Source of the DNA: Anaerococcus sp. Marseille-P3915
GTDB taxonomy: Bacteria > Bacillota > Clostridia > Tissierellales > Peptoniphilaceae
DNA: 64,000 bases
Assembly (NCBI RefSeq): GCF_900258475.1
Contig: NZ_LT984888.1
Coordinates: 146,639-210,638 of the forward strand
Reading direction: 5' to 3'
The position numbers and the translations under genes were made by a program. This document shows positions 26,324 to 60,940 of the stretch, piece after piece; position 1 is the stretch's first letter, and every line of letters starts with the position of its first letter. The notes below the pieces were generated by a model. It saw only the letters and a list, made by a program, of their open reading frames with translations, was not told the origin of the DNA and made no database searches.

Positions 26324-27490
26324 TTACTTGTCTTCTTTTGTAGCAGCCTTATAGATTTCTTCTAGGTAGCCTACTGTGTTATTGAGGGTTGCACCAGTTA
26401 CTGCATCTACTGGTTTGCCATTTTCGTTTGAATCTATTACTTCTTTGATTTCTTCTGGAGTCTTGCCTACTACGAATTCTTCGATTGCCTTGTAGTTTTC
26501 GTCAAGGTTTTTAGTAGCCTTGGCCATATCTTTCATCATCTTAGAATATTCTTCGTTGTTTTCAAGCTTGCTTGAAAGTTTCTTTGCAGGATCTGCGTAG
26601 TTTTCGCCGAATTTCTTATCAGAGTTTGGTACTCCAGCATCAGCGATATATTGAAGTTCATCTATGCTTGCTGCAACGATTTTGCCATCTTCTACTACTA
26701 CAAATGTGTCTGTTACAGCATTATTTGCACCAGCTGTACCAAAGAATTGTTGAAGTTTTATATTTGCAGGGTCACCCTCAAAGGCAACTGCATTTTCAGA
26801 TTTTTCAGCTGTGTTGATGATTGCTTGTAGGTAGCCTTTTGTATCTACAAGTGTAGCACCTGTTACTGAATCGATTGCTTTTCCATCTTCAGCACCTTCT
26901 ACAACTTCTTTAAGCTCATCGATTGTTTTACCTTTAGCGAAATCTTGGATAGCTTTGTAGTTATCTGAGATTGATACTGTTGATTTAGCCTTTTCTGTCA
27001 TAAGTTTAGAATAAGCTTCGCTATTTACAACCTTTGAACCAAGGATTTTGCCTTCTTTTGCACCTTTTTTAAATTCTGTGTCAGAATCTTGGTTTGGAAG
27101 GGCTACGAAATCTGATCCTTCGTCAAAATATTGGAATTCATCGATGCTTGCATCTACGATTTTTTCGCCATCTGTTACAACAGCAACTCTAGCAAATGAG
27201 CCTTCTCCGTGAGGAGCTTCTAGGCTACGTCTTAGGACAAGTTTTCCCTCAAAATTTGCCTTTAAATCTTCTGCCTTATCTTCTGCTGCATCTTTGGCAT
27301 CTTCAGCAGCATCCTTTGCATCTTCAGCAGCATTTTCTGCCTTATCTTTTGCATCGCTAGCAGCATCCTTAGCTTCTTCAGCTACATTTTCTGCCTTTTC
27401 GCCAGCATCCTTAGCTGCTTGGTTACCACATCCAACAAAGACTAGTGATAAAGCAAGAGCTAGGCTCGCTAACTTAATTTTGTTTGTCAT
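26324..27490 (-). CDS. Lipoprotein with two FMN-binding domains (PplA-like)
   Basis: A 388-residue lipoprotein with signal LALALSLVFVGC (lipobox FVGC). A highly charged Ala/Asp/Lys/Glu spacer of about 55 residues (repeats of AEDAKDA) follows, then two tandem FMN_bind domains. Each domain ends in a flavinylation motif, DSVTGATL near 210 and DAVTGATL near 366, where ApbE-type transferases attach FMN to the final Thr. Two such domains on a lipoprotein is the design of Listeria PplA, which passes electrons outside the cell in flavin-based extracellular electron transfer. I infer a similar extracytoplasmic redox role. No apbE or ndh2-like gene is in the window. Confidence 0.87.
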   Translation of the reverse strand: MTNKIKLASLALALSLVFVGCGNQAAKDAGEKAENVAEEAKDAASDAKDKAENAAEDAKDAAEDAKDAAEDKAEDLKANFEGKLVLRRSLEAPHGEGSFARVAVVTDGEKIVDASIDEFQYFDEGSDFVALPNQDSDTEFKKGAKEGKILGSKVVNSEAYSKLMTEKAKSTVSISDNYKAIQDFAKGKTIDELKEVVEGAEDGKAIDSVTGATLVDTKGYLQAIINTAEKSENAVAFEGDPANIKLQQFFGTAGANNAVTDTFVVVEDGKIVAASIDELQYIADAGVPNSDKKFGENYADPAKKLSSKLENNEEYSKMMKDMAKATKNLDENYKAIEEFVVGKTPEEIKEVIDSNENGKPVDAVTGATLNNTVGYLEEIYKAATKEDK

Positions 27491-29738: not shown

Positions 29739-31664
29739 ATGCTTTTTAAAACAACAGAACAACACGAAGAGCTTAGAAAAAAAGTTAGAGCTTTCGCAGA
29801 AGAAAAGGTAAAACCAATAGCCTTCGACCTCGATCAAAATAACCAATTTCCTGATGATATAGTTAAGGAAATGGGTGAAATGGGCCTTATGGGTATACCA
29901 TATCCAAAAGAATATGGTGGAGCAGGACTTGATGTTACCTCTTACGCTATAACAGTTGAAGAATTATCTAGAGTAGACGGTGGTGTGGGCGTTATTTGCT
30001 CAGCACATACTTCTTTAGGTAGCTGGCCAATCTTTGGTTTTGGTACAGAAGAACAAAAACAAAAATACTTAGTTCCACTTGCAAAAGGTGAAAAAATCGG
30101 TGCTTTTGGTCTTACAGAAGAAAACGCTGGTTCAGATGCTGGTGGTACAGAAACTACAGCAGTTCTTGATGGAGATTACTATATCCTAAACGGTAAGAAA
30201 ATCTTTATCACAAATGCACCAAAAGCTGACATATATGTAGTATTTGCAGTTACTACACCAGGTATTGGTACACATGGTATCTCTGCTTTCATAGTAGAAA
30301 AAGAATTTGAAGGATTCACCTTCTCAGACCACTATGACAAATTAGGTATCAGATCATCTTCAACAGCAGAACTTCATTTTGACAATGTAAAAGTTCCAAA
30401 AGAAAACTTACTTGGTAAAGAAGGCCAAGGATTTAAGATAGCTATGGCTACCTTAGACGGTGGTAGAATCGGTATAGCTTCTCAAGCCCTAGGTATCGGC
30501 CAAGGAGCATATGAATCCGCTCTTACTTATGCAAAAGAACGTGAACAATTTGGTATGCCTATAGCTCACCTACAAAGAAATACATTCAAACTTGCTGATA
30601 TGGCAACATATCTACGTGCAGCAAGACTAATGATCTATTCTGCAGCAGAACTTAAAGAAAATCACGAAAGATATTCTGCAGAAGCAGCAATGGCTAAACA
30701 AGTAGCATCAGACCTTGCAATGAAGATAACAACAGAAGCTATCCAACTATACGGTGGTTCAGGTTATATCAAGGGTGTAGATGTAGAAAGATTCTTCAGA
30801 GATGCTAAGATAACACAAATCTACGAAGGAACCAATGAAATCATGAGAGTAGTAGTTGGTGCTAGTACAGTAGGTCGTGCTCCAAAGATGAAAAGAGCAG
30901 GCTCAGCTGCTAAATCAGGTCCAATCGCAGGTGTTCGTAAAGGTGAAATCTTTGAAGGAGACCCAAAAGAAGCAGTTAAAAACCTAGTAGCAGCCCTCAA
31001 AAAAGACGGCTACGACTTTACAATAGGCATCGACCCAATGACACCAATTGGCGAAGCACAAAGAGTAGTAGTAGCAGGCCGTGGTATAGGTGAAAAGAAA
31101 AACATGAAGCTAATAGAAGACCTAGCTTACCAAGCAGGAGCAGCTATTTCATCATCTAGACCAGTAGCAGAAACATTAAAATACGTACCACTAGATAGAT
31201 ACATCGGTATGTCTGGACAAAGCTTTAGAGGCAACCTATACATCGGTGTAGGTGTATCAGGAGCAGGCCAACACTTAAAAGGCATGAAAGATGCATCAAC
31301 AATAGTAGCAATCAACAACAGCAAAAACGCTCCAATCTTCAATAACTGTGACTACGGTATAGTAGGCGATGCAATGGAAATTCTTCCACTATTAATCAAA
31401 GAACTTGATAATGGCCAAGAAAAGAAACCAGCACCACCACAACCAAAAATCAAAAGAAGTAAACCAAGAAAAATGGCTCCAAAAGAAGACGTTTATCTAG
31501 ACCTAGGTTCAGGATATGAATATGACCCAGAAGTAGGCGATCCAAGCCAAGGAATAGAACCAGGAACACCATTTGACAAACTACCTGACAGCTGGGTAAG
31601 CCCAGTATCTGGCGAAGCAAAAGAAGAATTCATCAGAATGGAATTCCCAGAAGATAGAAAGTAG
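29739..31664 (+). CDS. Acyl-CoA dehydrogenase / EtfA FAD-domain / rubredoxin-like fusion
   Basis: A 641-residue, three-part protein. Residues 1-~380 are a full acyl-CoA dehydrogenase with the FAD-binding region and the catalytic Glu363 in [11 protein letters not shown]. Residues ~405-565 are the C-terminal FAD domain of electron-transfer flavoprotein alpha ([41 protein letters not shown]). Residues 584-641 have the rubredoxin framework ([21 protein letters not shown]...LPDSWV) but all four iron ligands are replaced: YLDLGSG for Y-x-C-x-x-C-G, and SPVSG for CPxCG. The fused ETF part would accept electrons from the dehydrogenase flavin. With the flavodiiron gene 12 bases downstream, I infer a route from acyl-CoA to O2 or NO reduction, but the tail cannot carry iron in the normal way. 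No etfB is nearby. A GGAGG site precedes the ATG. Confidence 0.9.
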
Positions 31665-31676
31665 TAGGAGGAAATA

Positions 31677-32930
31677 ATGTATACAGTTAGAAAAGTAACA
31701 GATGATTTATATTATGTAGGTGGCGATGATAGAAGACTTGCCTTATTTGAAAATATATTTCCAATACCTGAAGGCGTATCTTATAACTCCTACCTATTAA
31801 TGGATGAAAAAACAGTTTTAATCGATGCGGTTGACTGGGCAATAACAAGAGAATACATGGTAAACGTAGCAAGAGTATTAGATGGCAGGGACCTAGACTA
31901 CTTGATTGTTCACCACATGGAACCAGACCACTGCTCATCAATAGAATTGATGCTACAAAGATATCCAAACCTAAAGATAATTTCTTCTGAAAAAGGAGTT
32001 ATGTTCATGAGACAATTTGGTTATCACGTAGACGATAGATACATCGAAGTAAAAGAAGGCGACACAGTAAGCTTTGGTAAACACGAATTCACCTTCGTAG
32101 AAGCACCAATGGTACACTGGCCAGAAGTATTAATGTCATATGATTCATACGACAAAGTCCTATTCTCAGCAGATGCCTTTGGATCATTTATCGCAAACAA
32201 CGGTAGACTATTCGCAGACGAAGTAAACTGGGATAGAGACTACCTAGACGAAGGACGTAGATACTACACAAACATCGTAGGTAAATACGGTACATTCGTA
32301 CAAAAGGCCCTAGCAAAAGCAGGTGGTCTAGACCTCAAATATATCTGCCCACTACACGGCCTAGTATGGAGAGATAACTTCGGCTACATCATCGACAAAT
32401 ACGTACACTGGGCAACCTACGAACCAGAAGAAGAAGGTGTCCTAATCGTATATGCATCAATGTATGGTAACACAGAATTTGCAGCCCAAGCCCTAGCAAG
32501 CAAGCTATGTGAAAAAGGCATGACCAACATCTCCCTAAGAGACGTATCAAGCACTCACGTATCAACCCTAATAGCAGAAAGCTTCAAATACTCAAACATA
32601 GTCCTAGCATCTGTAACCTACAACCTAGGAATCTATCCAGTAATGCTCAACTACCTAGAAGACATGAAAGCTCTAAACCTACAAAACAGAGCAATCTCAA
32701 TCATAGGTAATGGAACATGGGCTCCACAAGCAGCAGAAAAAATGGAAAAATTCATAGACGAAGAACTAAGACTAATGGACGTTCTACCAGAAAGCTTAGA
32801 CATAGTATCATCACTAAAGAAAGCAAAAGAACCAGACATGGATGCCATAGTAGATGGAATCTTCGACTCAATGAAGAAGAGAAGAGAAGAAAAAGCAAAA
32901 GCAGCTTCTCAAAAGAAGGGCAAAAAATAA
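31677..32930 (+). CDS. Flavodiiron protein (class A, O2/NO reductase)
   Basis: A 417-residue protein with a metallo-beta-lactamase-like diiron domain (1-~250) and a flavodoxin domain (~255-400, VLIVYASMYGNTEFAAQALA). Diiron ligands are seen as H80-x-E82-x-D84-H85 in HHMEPDH, His147 in MVHWPE, Asp in LFSADAFG and His in CPLHGL. Class A proteins reduce O2 to water or NO to N2O with electrons from rubredoxin or a partner flavoprotein. It is co-transcribed with the dehydrogenase fusion, whose degenerate rubredoxin-like tail may dock to it. The C-terminus is a Lys-rich tail of about 20 residues. An AGGAGG site precedes the ATG. Confidence 0.94.
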   Translation: MYTVRKVTDDLYYVGGDDRRLALFENIFPIPEGVSYNSYLLMDEKTVLIDAVDWAITREYMVNVARVLDGRDLDYLIVHHMEPDHCSSIELMLQRYPNLKIISSEKGVMFMRQFGYHVDDRYIEVKEGDTVSFGKHEFTFVEAPMVHWPEVLMSYDSYDKVLFSADAFGSFIANNGRLFADEVNWDRDYLDEGRRYYTNIVGKYGTFVQKALAKAGGLDLKYICPLHGLVWRDNFGYIIDKYVHWATYEPEEEGVLIVYASMYGNTEFAAQALASKLCEKGMTNISLRDVSSTHVSTLIAESFKYSNIVLASVTYNLGIYPVMLNYLEDMKALNLQNRAISIIGNGTWAPQAAEKMEKFIDEELRLMDVLPESLDIVSSLKKAKEPDMDAIVDGIFDSMKKRREEKAKAASQKKGKK

Positions 32931-42154: not shown

Positions 42155-42784
42155 TTACATTACCTTCTTATTGATAGCATTAACAATGATTTCCTTGCCA
42201 TCTTTTAATTCAAATTTGTATTTTTCGCCTTCGCCGTCGTTATAGAGTTTCCATTCTTTTATTTCTCCGCCGCCGTTTGATTCTAGGGCTATGTGCATGG
42301 CTTCTTCTGGTGGGATGGCCTTGCCTAGGTCTACTGGGTTTTCCTTATCTGCTCCCTTTTCCATTTCAGCTTCTGTTGTTTCTGCTGAGTTGGCATTTAC
42401 TTTTAGCTTATATTCATCACCATTTTTCTCGCCTTCAAAGGTATAGTAAGCCTCTCCATCTTCAACTTCGTAGCTTACCTCTGTAAGATTGTAAGGAGCG
42501 CCACCTACGTGGCTTTCAAATTTGTAGCTTGCAGCCTTTAGTGTTACCTTGTTATCTGGCATGACCATTTCAGCTGTAGTTTTTTCTTTATTGTCATCTG
42601 CTTGATCAGTAGCTTGTTCTTTATTGTCATCTGCTTGATCAGTAGCTTGTTCTTTATTATCGTCAGCAGGAGCTTCTGCTTTTTCTTCAACTTTAGTTTC
42701 TTCTTTGGTATTAGCTTTTTCACCATTGCATCCAGCAAAAACAAAACTTGTTGCTAGAAGTAGAGCTAGTATTTTTTTATTCAT
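42155..42784 (-). CDS. PepSY-like small lipoprotein with tandem repeat linker
   Basis: A 209-residue lipoprotein with lipobox FAGC (LLATSFVFAGCNG). A linker with tandem copies of DDNKEQATDQA and a partial third follows. The C-terminal domain resembles PepSY modules (AIPPEEAMHIALESNGGGEIKEWKLYNDGEGEKYKFEL). The family is found on cell surfaces and is thought to bind or inhibit peptidases; the role here is unknown. It is the most diverged member of a group of four similar lipoprotein genes (to 44997), each with its own ribosome site. Confidence 0.78.
   Translation of the reverse strand: MNKKILALLLATSFVFAGCNGEKANTKEETKVEEKAEAPADDNKEQATDQADDNKEQATDQADDNKEKTTAEMVMPDNKVTLKAASYKFESHVGGAPYNLTEVSYEVEDGEAYYTFEGEKNGDEYKLKVNANSAETTEAEMEKGADKENPVDLGKAIPPEEAMHIALESNGGGEIKEWKLYNDGEGEKYKFELKDGKEIIVNAINKKVM
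42587..42652 (-). repeat. 33-bp tandem repeat inside a lipoprotein gene
   Basis: Two identical 33-base units (42587-42619, 42620-42652) with a degenerate third start after them encode the DDNKEQATDQA linker. The perfect identity suggests recent slippage or length variation between strains. Confidence 0.88.
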
Positions 42785-42926
42785 ATTTTCCCCCTTATAA
42801 AAGCTTTGAACATTAGTATTATACCAAAAGGCCTATGTTTTACAAATTATAGAGTTTAATGTCTATTCTATATCAAAAGCTTTTTAGACTTGATAAATCA
42901 ATTAAATTGTAGCAGGATTTTTTAGT

Positions 42927-43496
42927 CTATTTTATTATCTCTCCCGTTGACCCGTTGATTTTTATATCTCTGCCTTCTGCTATATTTATGTAGTAAACTG
43001 CCTTTTTATCTTCGATTTTTAACTCGTATCCCTTTACCCAAGCGCCTTTACTTTGCTTCTCTAGGGCCTTTTCCATTGCATCAACGCCAGAAATAATATT
43101 TTTGAAGTCTAGGGCGAGTTTTTTATTGGTAGTGTCTTTTTCGATTTTTTCTTCTAGGATTTGGGCATTGTCATCGATTTTTAGCTTATATATCTTTCCG
43201 TTTTTAAATCCCTCAATATTTAGGATGAAAAGCTCATTGGTAAATTCCATTTTTATTTTATCTATATTTATTGAATCCATGTCTGTCTCACCAAAGTTGT
43301 GGTTGTGGAATATTTTTAGGGCGTCATCTAAGCTTTTTGCAAAATCTGGGACAGGTTTCTTTTTTATTTTGGAAATTTTCGTATTTTTATTTTCAACTTG
43401 CCTTATACCTGCTTCACTATTTTCCTTATTTGTATTATTACATCCCGTTAGCAAGAAAACAAAGGCTAATAAACCTATTAACACTTTTTTATTCAT
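42927..43496 (-). CDS. PepSY-like small lipoprotein, 189 aa
   Basis: The lipoprotein signal MNKKVLIGLLAFVFLLTGC is followed by a short Lys/Asn-rich linker. A duplicated alpha/beta domain follows: SLDDALKIFHNHNFGETDMDS then ISGVDAMEKALEKQSKGAWVKGYELKIEDKKAVYYI. It ends DIKINGSTGEIIK, the strand typical of PepSY repeats. It is paralogous to the next two lipoproteins. GGAGATATAG precedes the ATG. The function is unknown; a surface peptidase inhibitor or cofactor-binding role is only a family-level guess. Confidence 0.78.
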   Translation of the reverse strand: MNKKVLIGLLAFVFLLTGCNNTNKENSEAGIRQVENKNTKISKIKKKPVPDFAKSLDDALKIFHNHNFGETDMDSINIDKIKMEFTNELFILNIEGFKNGKIYKLKIDDNAQILEEKIEKDTTNKKLALDFKNIISGVDAMEKALEKQSKGAWVKGYELKIEDKKAVYYINIAEGRDIKINGSTGEIIK

Positions 43497-43584
43497 CTAT
43501 ATCTCCATAAGAATCTCTTTGTTATTGAGATTATACTAAATAGCTTTGCCTTATCAATTTTTATTGGTTTGCTTTGATTTTAGC

Positions 43585-43612
43585 GAAAAAATAGACCCAT
43601 TTGGGCCTATTA
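43585..43612 (-). terminator. Terminator after the 204-aa lipoprotein gene
   Basis: Stem ATAGACCCA / TGGGCCTAT (one G-T) with minus-strand T run. Confidence 0.75.
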
Positions 43613-43622
43613 ATTTTAGAAT

Positions 43623-44237
43623 TTAGTCTCTTTTTATTATGTCGCCTGTTGTGGCGTCAATTTTTACGTCCTTGCCATTATCTAGCTCTATGTCGTAGAC
43701 AACCTTGCCGTCTTCAATTTTTAGTTCATATTCTTTGACTTTAACATCTTCAGCTTGGCCTTCTAGGGATTTTTCCCAGGCGTCCTCACCAGAAATTATC
43801 TTAGTAAAATCTATGGCAAGTTTTTTCTTATCGTCGTCATCTTCGATTTTTTCTTCTAAAATTTTGCCATTGTTGTTTATCTTAAGCTGGTATTCTTTGC
43901 CATCTTTAAAACCTTCAATGCTATAGATTATATCCTTATCTAAGATTTCTACCTTAATTTTATCGAAATTAAAAGAATCAGCTGATGCATCTCCGAAATT
44001 ATGTTCGTGGAAAATTTTGACTGCGTCTTCCATATTCATGGCCACTTCAGGAGCTTTTTCTTTATCTGTGTCATCAGTTTTTTTATCATCTTCAGAAACT
44101 TCTTTTACACCTGTATTTGTATCTTCAACCTGGCTTGGTTTTTGCTTGGCATCTTCTACTGGCTTTGCATCTTTATTGCCACAGGCTCCTAAAATAAGGC
44201 TTGCTAAAAGAATTAGGCTTAAATTTTTGATTTTCAT
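43623..44237 (-). CDS. PepSY-like small lipoprotein, 204 aa
   Basis: The signal MKIKNLSLILLASLILGAC (lipobox LGAC) is followed by an Asp/Lys-rich linker. Two PepSY-like modules follow: MNMEDAVKIFHEHNFGDASADSFNFDKIKVEI... and IISGEDAWEKSLEGQAEDVKVKEYELKIEDGKVVYDIEL. It ends VKIDATTGDIIKRD. It is close in sequence to its neighbours at 42927 and 44395, showing local gene duplication. Its own terminator and ribosome site indicate separate transcription. Confidence 0.8.
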   Translation of the reverse strand: MKIKNLSLILLASLILGACGNKDAKPVEDAKQKPSQVEDTNTGVKEVSEDDKKTDDTDKEKAPEVAMNMEDAVKIFHEHNFGDASADSFNFDKIKVEILDKDIIYSIEGFKDGKEYQLKINNNGKILEEKIEDDDDKKKLAIDFTKIISGEDAWEKSLEGQAEDVKVKEYELKIEDGKVVYDIELDNGKDVKIDATTGDIIKRD

Positions 44238-44362
44238 ATTTTACTCCTCTTATATAATATTAGCTCAAAAAAGGAATTCCTGTTTTCTTAAATATATTAT
44301 ACCAGATATTAGAAAAGTTCAATATTTCTTACAAAAGTTTTAAGATTTGTAAGTATGATAAT

Positions 44363-44388
44363 AAAAAAATAGACCCGAAGGCCTATTT
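44363..44388 (-). terminator. Terminator after the 200-aa lipoprotein gene
   Basis: Stem ATAGACC / GGCCTAT-type hairpin (loop CGAA) with seven-base T run on the minus strand. Confidence 0.75.
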
Positions 44389-44394
44389 ATAAAA

Positions 44395-44997
44395 TTATTT
44401 GATTATTTCACCTGTCGCTGCATCAATTCTTACATCTTCTGCATTTTCTAGGTCTATGTCATAGACTGCTTTGCCATTTTCTACTTCTAGTTCATAGCCT
44501 TTAATATAAACACTATCAGCTTGACCTTCTAGGGCTTTTTCCATGGCTTCTTTGCCTGTTATTATAGCTTTTCTATCTATAGCCATTACCTTTGTGTCAT
44601 CTTCTGCTTCTGTTTTTTCGCTGATGATTTCAAGAGTATTGGCATCTAAAACGGCTTCGTATTCTTGACCATCTTTAAAACCCTTTACGCCATAGCAATA
44701 TTTGCCATTTTCTTCGTCAAGTTCTGCACTTGTTAGCTCGATTGCCTCATCTTTATAGTGGGCATAAAAAGCGTCGATTGCTTCTTCTAGTGTTTTTTCT
44801 GTGGCTGGGATTGGATTTTTTGCAGCTGTGTTTGCATCATTTGCTACTTCCTTTACTGCATCATTATTTTCTGCTACTTGGCTTTCTTCTTGTTTTACTT
44901 CTTTTGCTCCATCATTAGCTGGCTTTGCTGCTTGATTGCCACAAGCGCTAAGGACTAGGCCTGCTGCTAGCATCATTATTAATTTTTTATTTTTCAT
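44395..44997 (-). CDS. PepSY-like small lipoprotein, 200 aa
   Basis: The start is ATG 44997 with AAGGAGA upstream; the ATG at 45018 precedes that site. The signal is MKNKKLIMMLAAGLVLSAC, then an Ala/Lys/Asn-rich linker. Two PepSY-like modules follow (TLEEAIDAFYAHYKDEAIEL and ITGKEAMEKALEGQADSVYIKGYELEVENGKAVYDIDLENA), ending DVRIDAATGEIIK. It is the first member of the group of four and lies divergent from the radical SAM gene. Confidence 0.8.
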   Translation of the reverse strand: MKNKKLIMMLAAGLVLSACGNQAAKPANDGAKEVKQEESQVAENNDAVKEVANDANTAAKNPIPATEKTLEEAIDAFYAHYKDEAIELTSAELDEENGKYCYGVKGFKDGQEYEAVLDANTLEIISEKTEAEDDTKVMAIDRKAIITGKEAMEKALEGQADSVYIKGYELEVENGKAVYDIDLENAEDVRIDAATGEIIK

Positions 44998-45155
44998 TCT
45001 ATCTCCTTCAATTTTCATCGTCTTATTTTACTTTATACCCAAGGATTGCAGGTTTTAAGCAAATTTTCCTTTTTTCTGTATGAGGGTTATGTATATATTA
45101 ATTTTTGTGGTAGAATCCAGGTAAGATTTGAAGGAAATTTTAGGGAGGTGGTTTT

Positions 45156-45839
45156 ATCAATAGGTATTCAAAGATTACGAATAAGACTAAAAGGGAGATT
45201 GTTCTTTTAAAGGCTAGGCCTTGCAAGTGGGGCAAGTGTAGCTTTTGTGATTATATAGATGACAATGAAGTCGATGAAAAAGCGATTGATGAGGTCAATT
45301 TTGAGGTTTTAAAAAATGTGACCGGAGAGTATGGGGTCCTAGAAGTCATCGATTCAGCATCGGTTTTTGACTTAACTGATGCTACTCTTGCTGAGATAAA
45401 GAGGATTGTAGATGCTAAAAATATCAAGCACTTATTTTTTGAGGCCCATTGGATTTATAGGAATAGGCTAGATGAGATTAGGGATTATTTTAAAATTCCT
45501 ATTACCTTTAAGACTGGCGTTGAGACTTTTGACAATGACTTTAGGGAAAAGATCCTTAGAAAGGGTGCGACCTTTACAGATTATAGACAGGTTAAGAAAT
45601 ATTTTGATTCTCCTTGCGTGATGGTTGGAATTAAGGGCCAGACTAAGGAGATGATTGATAGGGATATGGAGATAATTAGGGAATTTTCCCATGCTACTGT
45701 CAATATTTTTATGAATAATTCCACACCTATAAAGAGGGATGAAGACCTGGTTAGCTGGTTTGTCGAAAAGTATAGGTATCTTGAAGATGATCCAAAGATT
45801 GATATCTTATTTGAAATCACTGATTTTGGAGTGGGTTGA
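45156..45839 (+). CDS. Radical SAM protein with apparent ATC start codon
   Basis: A 227-codon frame carries the radical SAM cluster motif as CKWGKCSFC (C-x4-C-x2-C) near residue 23, followed by DYIDDNEVDEKAI. The only in-frame ATG/GTG/TTG start (GTG 45318) would remove the cluster. AGGGAGG at 45142-45148 stands seven bases before ATC at 45156, where the translation would read NRYSKITNKTKREIVLLKARPC, a natural N-terminus. So either ATC initiates translation or a G-to-C change has damaged the start. The enzyme would use a 4Fe-4S cluster and S-adenosylmethionine; its substrate is unknown. Confidence 0.75.
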   Translation: MNRYSKITNKTKREIVLLKARPCKWGKCSFCDYIDDNEVDEKAIDEVNFEVLKNVTGEYGVLEVIDSASVFDLTDATLAEIKRIVDAKNIKHLFFEAHWIYRNRLDEIRDYFKIPITFKTGVETFDNDFREKILRKGATFTDYRQVKKYFDSPCVMVGIKGQTKEMIDRDMEIIREFSHATVNIFMNNSTPIKRDEDLVSWFVEKYRYLEDDPKIDILFEITDFGVG

Positions 45840-60346: not shown

Positions 60347-60940
60347 ATGGCAGAACTAAAAGGAACAAAAACAGCACAAAACTTAATTACATCATTCGTT
60401 GGTGAATCACAAGCTAACATGAGATATACATATGCTGCAAAAACTGCAGAAAAAGAAGGCTATAGACAAATCGCAGCAATCTTTAGAGAAACAGCAATGA
60501 ACGAAAGAGAACACGCTGCAAGATTCTACAAATTCCTAAAAGAAGAATACAAACTAGAAACAATTGAATTAACAGAAGGCTATACAGCTTGGCCAGTAAT
60601 TTGGCATGACACATTAACAAACCTACAAGGCGCTATCGATGGTGAAAACGAAGAATGCGAAGATATGTATCCAGCATTTGCTGACGTAGCAGAAGAAGAA
60701 GGATTCGACGAAATCGCTAGAGCATTCAGAAACATAGCAAAAGCTGAAGGCGCTCACAGAGATAGATACCAAAAACTACACGACAATGTAGAAAATGGCA
60801 CAGTATTTGAAAAAGAAGAATCAGTAATCTGGAAATGTGGAAACTGTGGCTTCCTATATGAAGGCAAAAAAGCACCAAAAATATGCCCAGCATGCCACCA
60901 CCCACAAGAATGGTTCGAAGTAGCAGCATTTAACTATTAA
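60347..60940 (+). CDS. rbr: Rubrerythrin
   Basis: A 197-residue, non-sulfur-protected peroxidase. Residues 1-~145 are the four-helix diiron domain with Glu/His ligands (GESQANMRYTYAAKTAEKEG, AMNEREHAARFYKFL, AFRNIAKAEGAHRDRYQ). Residues ~160-197 are a complete rubredoxin-like domain, CGNCGFLYEGKKAPKICPACHHPQEWF, with all four cysteines. It reduces H2O2 in the cytoplasm of anaerobes using NAD(P)H through a reductase. Two Fur/PerR-like boxes and a strong promoter suggest induction by peroxide or metal stress. Repeat copy R3 starts at its stop codon. Confidence 0.96.
   Translation: MAELKGTKTAQNLITSFVGESQANMRYTYAAKTAEKEGYRQIAAIFRETAMNEREHAARFYKFLKEEYKLETIELTEGYTAWPVIWHDTLTNLQGAIDGENEECEDMYPAFADVAEEEGFDEIARAFRNIAKAEGAHRDRYQKLHDNVENGTVFEKEESVIWKCGNCGFLYEGKKAPKICPACHHPQEWFEVAAFNY

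What the first reader, a model, noticed from the sequence alone, without database searches (positions are those of the whole stretch)
29739..31664. Rubredoxin-like domain lacking all four iron cysteines, fused to acyl-CoA dehydrogenase and EtfA
The C-terminal 58 residues keep the rubredoxin skeleton ([25 protein letters not shown]) but each ligand cysteine is replaced, giving YLDLGSG and SPVSG. The rubredoxin domain of rubrerythrin in the same window is intact. A domain kept in sequence but stripped of its metal site suggests a new job, for instance docking to the flavodiiron protein encoded next.
Basis: partly seen in the sequence, partly recalled or inferred. Interest (0 to 1): 0.82.

Follow-up and report, generated by a model that had tools for sequence, protein, structure and literature searches.

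The report
Oxygen-scavenging enzyme with iron-free rubredoxin
Nearly all examined members of one genus of anaerobic bacteria carry a known kind of oxygen-scavenging enzyme whose small iron-carrying domain has lost all four iron ligands yet is still preserved, which offers a natural test of whether that iron is needed to pass electrons to oxygen.

Summary
Window 29739-31664 encodes an acyl-CoA dehydrogenase fused to the EtfA FAD domain and a rubredoxin domain, 12 bases before a flavodiiron protein (FDP) gene. This is the gene pair of the known butyryl-CoA:O2 oxidoreductase (BOOR) of Fusobacterium nucleatum. The genus is Anaerococcus, judged from named homologues. All 28 distinct Anaerococcus proteins (29 of 31 genomes) have D,S,S,S where all 130 other distinct complete homologues have C,C,C,C; no intermediates. 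The loss is one event, and the two nearest relatives keep the cysteines. The stripped domain is under purifying selection (dN/dS 0.093, EtfA 0.094), so it is not decay. Well-conserved positions replaced in Anaerococcus fall in the two flavin domains on either side of the lost iron (EtfA plus FDP flavodoxin 9 of 118) rather than in the catalytic domains (1 of 296; p 7.5e-5). Most likely this BOOR reduces its FDP without a rubredoxin iron, FAD to FMN directly, with the iron-free domain kept for structure or docking. Direct transfer and docking are inferred. New variant of a known kind.

The parts
29739..30878 (+). Acyl-CoA dehydrogenase domain (residues 1-380), butyryl-CoA dehydrogenase type; Glu of YEGTNEI kept
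   Evidence: Pfam PF02771/PF02770/PF00441; best solved chain 5ol2_C; that Glu in 143 of 143 distinct proteins; its catalytic role is recalled
31047..31418 (+). C-terminal FAD domain of EtfA (residues 437-560)
   Evidence: PF00766; aligns with EtfA chains 1efp, 1efv, 5ol2
31071..31073 (+). V445: near-universal Ser replaced by Val in all 28 distinct Anaerococcus proteins
   Evidence: S in 114 of 115 others
31245..31247 (+). G503: Ala replaced by Gly in all 28
   Evidence: A in 115 of 115 others
31254..31256 (+). V506: near-universal Ile replaced by Val in all 28
   Evidence: I in 112 of 115 others
31491..31634 (+). Rubredoxin domain without iron ligands (residues 585-632)
   Evidence: PF00301 50.9 bits; dN/dS 0.093 in the genus; predicted rubredoxin fold, 1rdg at 0.9 A over 51 columns
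31500..31511 (+). First ligand loop: CxxC replaced by D588-L-G-S591
31599..31610 (+). Second ligand loop: CPxC replaced by S621-P-V-S624
31677..32930 (+). Flavodiiron protein (ODP/beta-lactamase plus flavodoxin domains), partner subunit
   Evidence: PF19583, PF00258; four motifs recalled as holding the diiron ligands identical in 28 of 28 genus FDPs; same-strand FDP in 169 of 173 BCR loci
32691..32708 (+). FDP A339 to G344: flavodoxin strand leading into the GNGTWAP loop; T339 and E344 of the other FDPs are replaced in all 28
   Evidence: T in 107 of 114 and E in 108 of 114 others; both sisters keep T and E; that the loop binds FMN is recalled

Best explanation
The two genes encode an Anaerococcus form of butyryl-CoA:O2 oxidoreductase (BOOR). 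The dehydrogenase FAD takes electrons from butyryl-CoA (or another short acyl-CoA) and passes them to the FAD of the EtfA domain. In ordinary BOOR the fused rubredoxin iron is expected to relay electrons to the FMN of the flavodiiron protein (FDP), which reduces O2 to water. In the ancestor of Anaerococcus all four iron ligands were lost, and the relay was probably replaced by direct one-electron transfer from the EtfA FAD to the FDP FMN, helped by changes in the EtfA FAD domain (S445V, A503G, I506V) and in the FDP flavodoxin domain (T339, E344). The folded, iron-free rubredoxin domain is kept as a structural or docking part of the complex. Shown: family, gene pair, complete ligand loss, single origin, purifying selection, changes concentrated in the two flavin domains. 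Inferred: O2 reduction here, direct FAD-to-FMN transfer, docking role.
For: Domain order and adjacent FDP as in F. nucleatum BOOR. DSSS in 28 of 28 distinct Anaerococcus proteins, CCCC in 113 of 113 other complete ones (2 more truncated) and in 17 further new ones (130 in all). One loss event, sisters L053 and L106 intact. Rubredoxin-domain dN/dS 0.093 in the genus against 0.094 (EtfA) and 0.061 (ACAD), and 0.072 and 0.047 in two CCCC groups; six aromatic positions invariant in 28 of 28. At 90% conservation in the others, positions fixed differently in Anaerococcus: ACAD 0 of 198, EtfA 6 of 72, FDP lactamase 1 of 98, FDP flavodoxin 3 of 46; flavin domains against catalytic domains p 7.5e-5, while four control clades give p 0.14-0.71. 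Counting only positions where both sisters keep the old residue: 7 of 118 against 1 of 296, p 8e-4. G503 in 45 of 50 fusions without an iron rubredoxin, 0 of 113 with one; 5 of 5 two-subunit EtfA genes of the genus keep Ser and Ala there. Paralogous fusions with no rubredoxin lie beside a divergent FDP in 17 of 20 Anaerococcus stretches fetched. The two Anaerococcus genomes without the fusion have no ETF_alpha match. PDB 1qcv is a 'rubredoxin variant PFRD-XC4', recalled as the designed cysteine-free form of 'Rubredoxin Variant Folds without Iron' (title seen as a reference).
Against: No biochemistry on an Anaerococcus member was found. G503 and V445 are confounded with genus: the 3 rubredoxin-less fusions from other genera, and 2 of Anaerococcus (L187, L188), keep Ala503. 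Four of the nine flavin-domain changes are weak: 495 and FDP 307 are already changed in one or both sisters, and 471 and 535 also change in CCCC groups g318 and g7. The EtfA-against-ACAD test depends on threshold (p 0.27 at 100%, 0.014 at 97%, 0.0036 at 95%); flavodoxin alone against lactamase is not significant (p 0.24). In the five proteins nearest the window the rubredoxin domain is less constrained (dN/dS 0.130) than EtfA (0.080). A free rubredoxin could relay instead. Four of five tail models have pLDDT 49-58.
Confidence: 0.55

Rival explanations
1. Trans relay: the stripped domain is only structural, and one of the free, intact rubredoxins of the cell carries electrons from the EtfA FAD to the FDP.
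For: 31 of 31 Anaerococcus genomes have a full-length free rubredoxin match; the three read in full keep four cysteines. Rubredoxins are usual donors of FDPs (recalled).
Against: Free rubredoxin is also present in family genomes with an intact fused domain (such as G031, G032, G034, G036) and in the two Anaerococcus without BOOR, so its presence is not tied to the loss. It does not explain why the fused fold is kept.
Confidence: 0.21
2. Decoupled enzyme: without the iron the protein no longer feeds the FDP; it uses another acceptor or works as a crotonyl-CoA reductase, and the tail is a stability or assembly domain.
For: All four ligands are gone; conserved EtfA positions changed.
Against: The FDP stays 5-13 bases downstream in the 29 genus loci, its diiron motifs are kept in 28 of 28, and the genomes without the fusion lack EtfA altogether.
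Confidence: 0.14
3. Neutral relic: the tail is decaying after loss of the iron and has no function.
For: All four ligands lost; paralogues lack the tail altogether; dN/dS somewhat raised in the closest five (0.130).
Against: Genus-wide dN/dS 0.093 with normal synonymous divergence (pS 0.549), 33 of 48 domain positions identical in all 28, DSSS itself invariant, and no truncation in the 29 genomes that have the gene.
Confidence: 0.05
4. The D,S,S,S site binds another metal and still relays electrons.
For: D and the three S are invariant in 28 of 28.
Against: One carboxylate and three serine hydroxyls make a poor soft-metal site (recalled chemistry); no natural precedent among the titles listed.
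Confidence: 0.05

Closest known systems
Butyryl-CoA oxygen oxidoreductase (BOOR; BCR plus FDP, FN1423-FN1424) of Fusobacterium nucleatum
   Same: Same domain order (dehydrogenase, EtfA C-terminus, rubredoxin) and adjacent FDP gene
   Different: All four rubredoxin ligands replaced by D,S,S,S; conserved EtfA and flavodoxin positions replaced; activity untested
Fusions of acyl-CoA dehydrogenase and EtfA without rubredoxin, next to a divergent FDP (Anaerococcus paralogues such as G000:C1:69693-71366)
   Same: Same first two domains, FDP neighbour in 17 of 20 stretches, Gly503 in 17 of 22 rubredoxin-less proteins
   Different: Tail absent instead of stripped; placed apart from the stripped clade on the trees
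EtfAB/Bcd complex (C. difficile, 5ol2)
   Same: EtfA FAD domain exchanges electrons with the dehydrogenase FAD directly, about 8 A apart (PMC5691135, passages)
   Different: EtfA and EtfB are separate subunits; no rubredoxin, no FDP
Rubredoxin variant PFRD-XC4 (PDB 1qcv)
   Same: Rubredoxin fold without iron ligands (name; the rest recalled)
   Different: Designed from P. furiosus rubredoxin, with other replacement residues (recalled)

Membership tests
BOOR (BCR subunit) | Fusion of butyryl-CoA dehydrogenase-type domain, EtfA C-terminal FAD domain and rubredoxin domain | tested here: met
   Pfam domains in that order; named non-Anaerococcus homologues at 66-79% identity align to residue 631 or beyond, except two cut by contig ends
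BOOR (BCR subunit) | Adjacent FDP gene | tested here: met
   12 bases between stop and FDP start; same-strand FDP in the locus in 169 of 173
BOOR (BCR subunit) | Fe(Cys)4 rubredoxin site | tested here: not met
   D588 S591 S621 S624; 28 of 28 distinct genus members
BOOR (BCR subunit) | Butyryl-CoA-dependent O2 reduction in an alpha4beta4 complex | not testable with these tools
   Reported for F. nucleatum (PMC12288474, passages)
Rubredoxin (PF00301) | Sequence profile above cut-off | tested here: met
   50.9 bits against 23
Rubredoxin (PF00301) | Four cysteine iron ligands | tested here: not met
Rubredoxin (PF00301) | Rubredoxin fold | tested here: inconclusive
   Predicted only: best tail model pLDDT 79 but the other four 49-58; best PDB match 1rdg, rmsd 0.9 over 51 columns; residues 591-630 have block means 80-86 in the full-length model

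The most novel reading that the evidence does not exclude
In BOOR-type enzymes the fused rubredoxin is at heart a docking and assembly module, and the EtfA FAD can reduce the FDP FMN directly. Anaerococcus is a natural iron-free version, with both flavin domains adjusted, that removed the rubredoxin iron from an O2-reducing chain and kept the chain.
Probability: 0.42. Interest if true: 0.75.

Novelty: new variant of a known kind. Interest (0 to 1): 0.61.

Why it matters
BOOR is reported to let anaerobes use O2 while conserving energy, and to occur in many Firmicutes including butyrate formers (PMC12288474, passages). Whether its fused rubredoxin iron is an obligatory relay can be tested directly with a lineage that has removed it. 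It would also be a natural counterpart of the designed cysteine-free rubredoxin, and the comparison names residues in two flavin domains to swap.

Tried and rejected
Strain-level decay or sequencing error: rejected, since 29 genus genomes agree and 50 of 50 loci carry the motifs. A constraint on DNA or RNA rather than protein: not supported, since pS in the rubredoxin region (0.549) is like that of the other domains (0.516-0.563, the 9-residue end 0.373). Gene conversion between the two Anaerococcus paralogues as the source of G503/V445: DNA identity near these codons is only slightly higher (0.62-0.79) than over EtfA (0.61-0.67) or overall (0.68-0.69) in the six genomes compared (in two of them the printed codons are off by one residue); a very short tract cannot be excluded. 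Position 495: dropped as part of the change, because sisters L053 and L106 already have Thr.

FDP co-change: at a 95% threshold I saw only position 307, shared with CCCC relative L106, and first wrote that the FDP shows no linked change. Rechecking at 90% found N17, T339 and E344 replaced in all 28 with both sisters unchanged. A seeming insertion in the FDP of G024 is a run of N.

Rows dropped before counts: L094 and L111 (cut by contig ends) from complete-ligand counts; L192 (partial) from the position-503 counts; identical proteins merged; 21 named Anaerococcus loci left out of the FDP comparison as copies of the genus set. One class-draw match (G909) had no locus and was not read.

Full report
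What is there. Window 29739-31664 (+) is a 641-residue ORF. Pfam gives acyl-CoA dehydrogenase N, M and C domains, ETF_alpha at 437-517 and Rubredoxin at 592-631 with 50.9 bits. The next gene, 31677-32930, is a flavodiiron protein (FDP). Only the C-terminal FAD domain of EtfA is present. The rubredoxin ligand positions hold D588, S591, S621 and S624. The rubrerythrin at 60347-60940 has both CxxC pairs.

Known system. A review (PMC12288474, passages) describes in Fusobacterium nucleatum a fusion of butyryl-CoA dehydrogenase, EtfA C-terminus and rubredoxin (BCR), bicistronic with an FDP; [quoted passage not shown] The primary paper (Bystrom & Wolthers 2024) is not held and was not read. A 2026 preprint (PMC13404960, passages) finds the same pair in gut Clostridia. 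So the locus is a BOOR locus; the rubredoxin state is what is unusual.

Census. In family f1, 88 of 130 genomes match at E 1e-230 or better; one (G490) lacks the rubredoxin part, leaving 87: 29 of 31 in the genus and 58 elsewhere. I fetched all 58, besides the 80 named loci kept (of 399 relatives it found) and a few from a phylum draw (5 of 398 genomes). Of 143 distinct proteins, 28 are DSSS (all Anaerococcus), 113 CCCC, and 2 are cut by contig ends. A class draw (31 of 391 genomes) added 25 loci, 17 with new proteins, all CCCC. A recount over residues 10-632 gives 28 DSSS and 130 CCCC. No intermediate was seen.

Origin and selection. On a tree of 141 proteins built without the rubredoxin columns the DSSS proteins form one clade (SH-aLRT 99) and the loss is one change; two CCCC proteins (L053, L106) join next, support 99, though only 83 on a smaller tree with paralogues. 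Pooled dN/dS in Anaerococcus is 0.061 for the dehydrogenase, 0.094 for EtfA and 0.093 for the rubredoxin domain; the rubredoxin domain has 0.072 and 0.047 in two CCCC groups, 0.070 in 16 Anaerococcus at 89-91%, and 0.130 (EtfA 0.080) in the five nearest the window. In the domain 33 of 48 positions are identical in all 28, as in EtfA (86 of 124), including six aromatic positions. A rubredoxin fold is predicted for the tail from Anaerococcus sequences alone (best model pLDDT 79, the other four 49-58; nearest solved structure 1rdg, 0.9 A over 51 columns) and in the full-length model.

Changes elsewhere. Among BCR positions conserved at 97% or more in the other 113 proteins, EtfA is replaced at 3 of 55 (S445V, A503G, I506V), the dehydrogenase at 0 of 169, the first linker at 1 of 10 (T397A, also in sister L053) and the rubredoxin domain at 4 of 14 (the ligands); EtfA against dehydrogenase p 0.014, but 0.27 at 100% and 0.0036 at 95%. 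At 90%, and with the FDP, the counts are dehydrogenase 0 of 198, EtfA 6 of 72, FDP lactamase 1 of 98, FDP flavodoxin 3 of 46. Flavin domains against catalytic domains: 9 of 118 against 1 of 296, p 7.5e-5. Six other clades served as controls: g322 0 of 110 against 4 of 308 (p 0.58), g3 3 of 114 against 6 of 301 (0.71), g318 8 of 116 against 14 of 306 (0.33), g7 9 of 119 against 12 of 304 (0.14); g294 and g324 have 0 and 1 changes and were not tested. Of the nine, 495 is already changed in both sisters and FDP 307 in L106, leaving 7 of 118 against 1 of 296 (p 8e-4); 471 and 535 also change in CCCC groups g318 and g7. The flavodoxin changes T339 and E344 lie in and just after the strand that leads into GNGTWAP, recalled as an FMN loop. 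In the model 445 and 503 lie in EtfA strands 442-446 and 500-504. Partners face the strand C-ends of this domain around its FAD in C. difficile EtfAB/Bcd (PMC5691135, passages). Five two-subunit EtfA genes from Anaerococcus, 5 of 5 looked at, keep Ser and Ala at 445 and 503.

Paralogues without rubredoxin. Anaerococcus also has dehydrogenase-EtfA fusions that end near residue 560; an FDP lies on the opposite strand in 17 of 20 stretches fetched, the other three being short. Gly503 is found in 28 of 28 stripped, 17 of 22 rubredoxin-less and 0 of 113 iron-site proteins; the position needs four changes on that tree and five on a smaller one. This fits retuning where no iron relay is present, but all Gly503 cases are in Anaerococcus, and the three rubredoxin-less proteins from other genera and two of Anaerococcus keep Ala, so genus is a confounder.

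Context. A same-strand FDP is in the locus in 169 of 173 BCR loci (copies between collections counted); in the 29 genus loci the gap is 5-13 bases, elsewhere mostly under 300 (three listed gaps of 314, 371 and 864); the four without one lie near contig ends. The two Anaerococcus genomes without the fusion (G012, G025) have no ETF_alpha match, which fits loss of the butyryl-CoA pathway. A full-length free rubredoxin match is in 31 of 31 genus genomes, with or without the fusion.

Reading. The enzyme is a BOOR whose rubredoxin lacks every usual iron ligand, by descent from one that had them, and whose stripped domain is selected. I think it most likely that electrons pass from the EtfA FAD directly to the FDP FMN and that the domain holds the partners together. 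The steps after the dehydrogenase are inference. Searches for Anaerococcus with flavodiiron (0 papers) and with rubredoxin (1 paper, on indoor anaerobes by its title, not opened) showed no prior report in the held library; most subscription papers are not covered.

Noticed in passing
G000:C1:68308-71366 (outside the window; locus L177): Second gene pair in the same genome: a dehydrogenase-EtfA fusion without any rubredoxin tail, divergent from a second FDP 42% identical to the window's. The electron route from one to the other is unexplained.
   Followed up: partly
G012 and G025 (same genus, whole genomes): Both lack the BOOR fusion and have no ETF_alpha match, though 98-99% complete; they keep a free rubredoxin and an FDP 47-50% identical to the window's.
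   Followed up: partly
window 26324-27490 (-): Lipoprotein with an Ala/Lys/Asp/Glu-rich stretch and two repeats, each with a VTGAT motif that recalls flavin-attachment motifs (recalled); no Pfam match at E 0.001.
   Followed up: partly
window 42155-45018 (-): Four consecutive small lipoprotein genes that look related; the two scanned, 42155-42784 and 43623-44237, end in a PepSY domain.
   Followed up: partly
window 45144-45839 (+): Radical-SAM-like frame with CKWGKCSFC (PF04055, 28.4 bits, just under the cut-off of 29.5); the ORF start listed at 45318 is downstream of the cysteine motif.
   Followed up: partly
G004, G005, G006, G018, G021 (same genus): Two free rubredoxin genes in tandem about 300 bases apart.
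   Followed up: no
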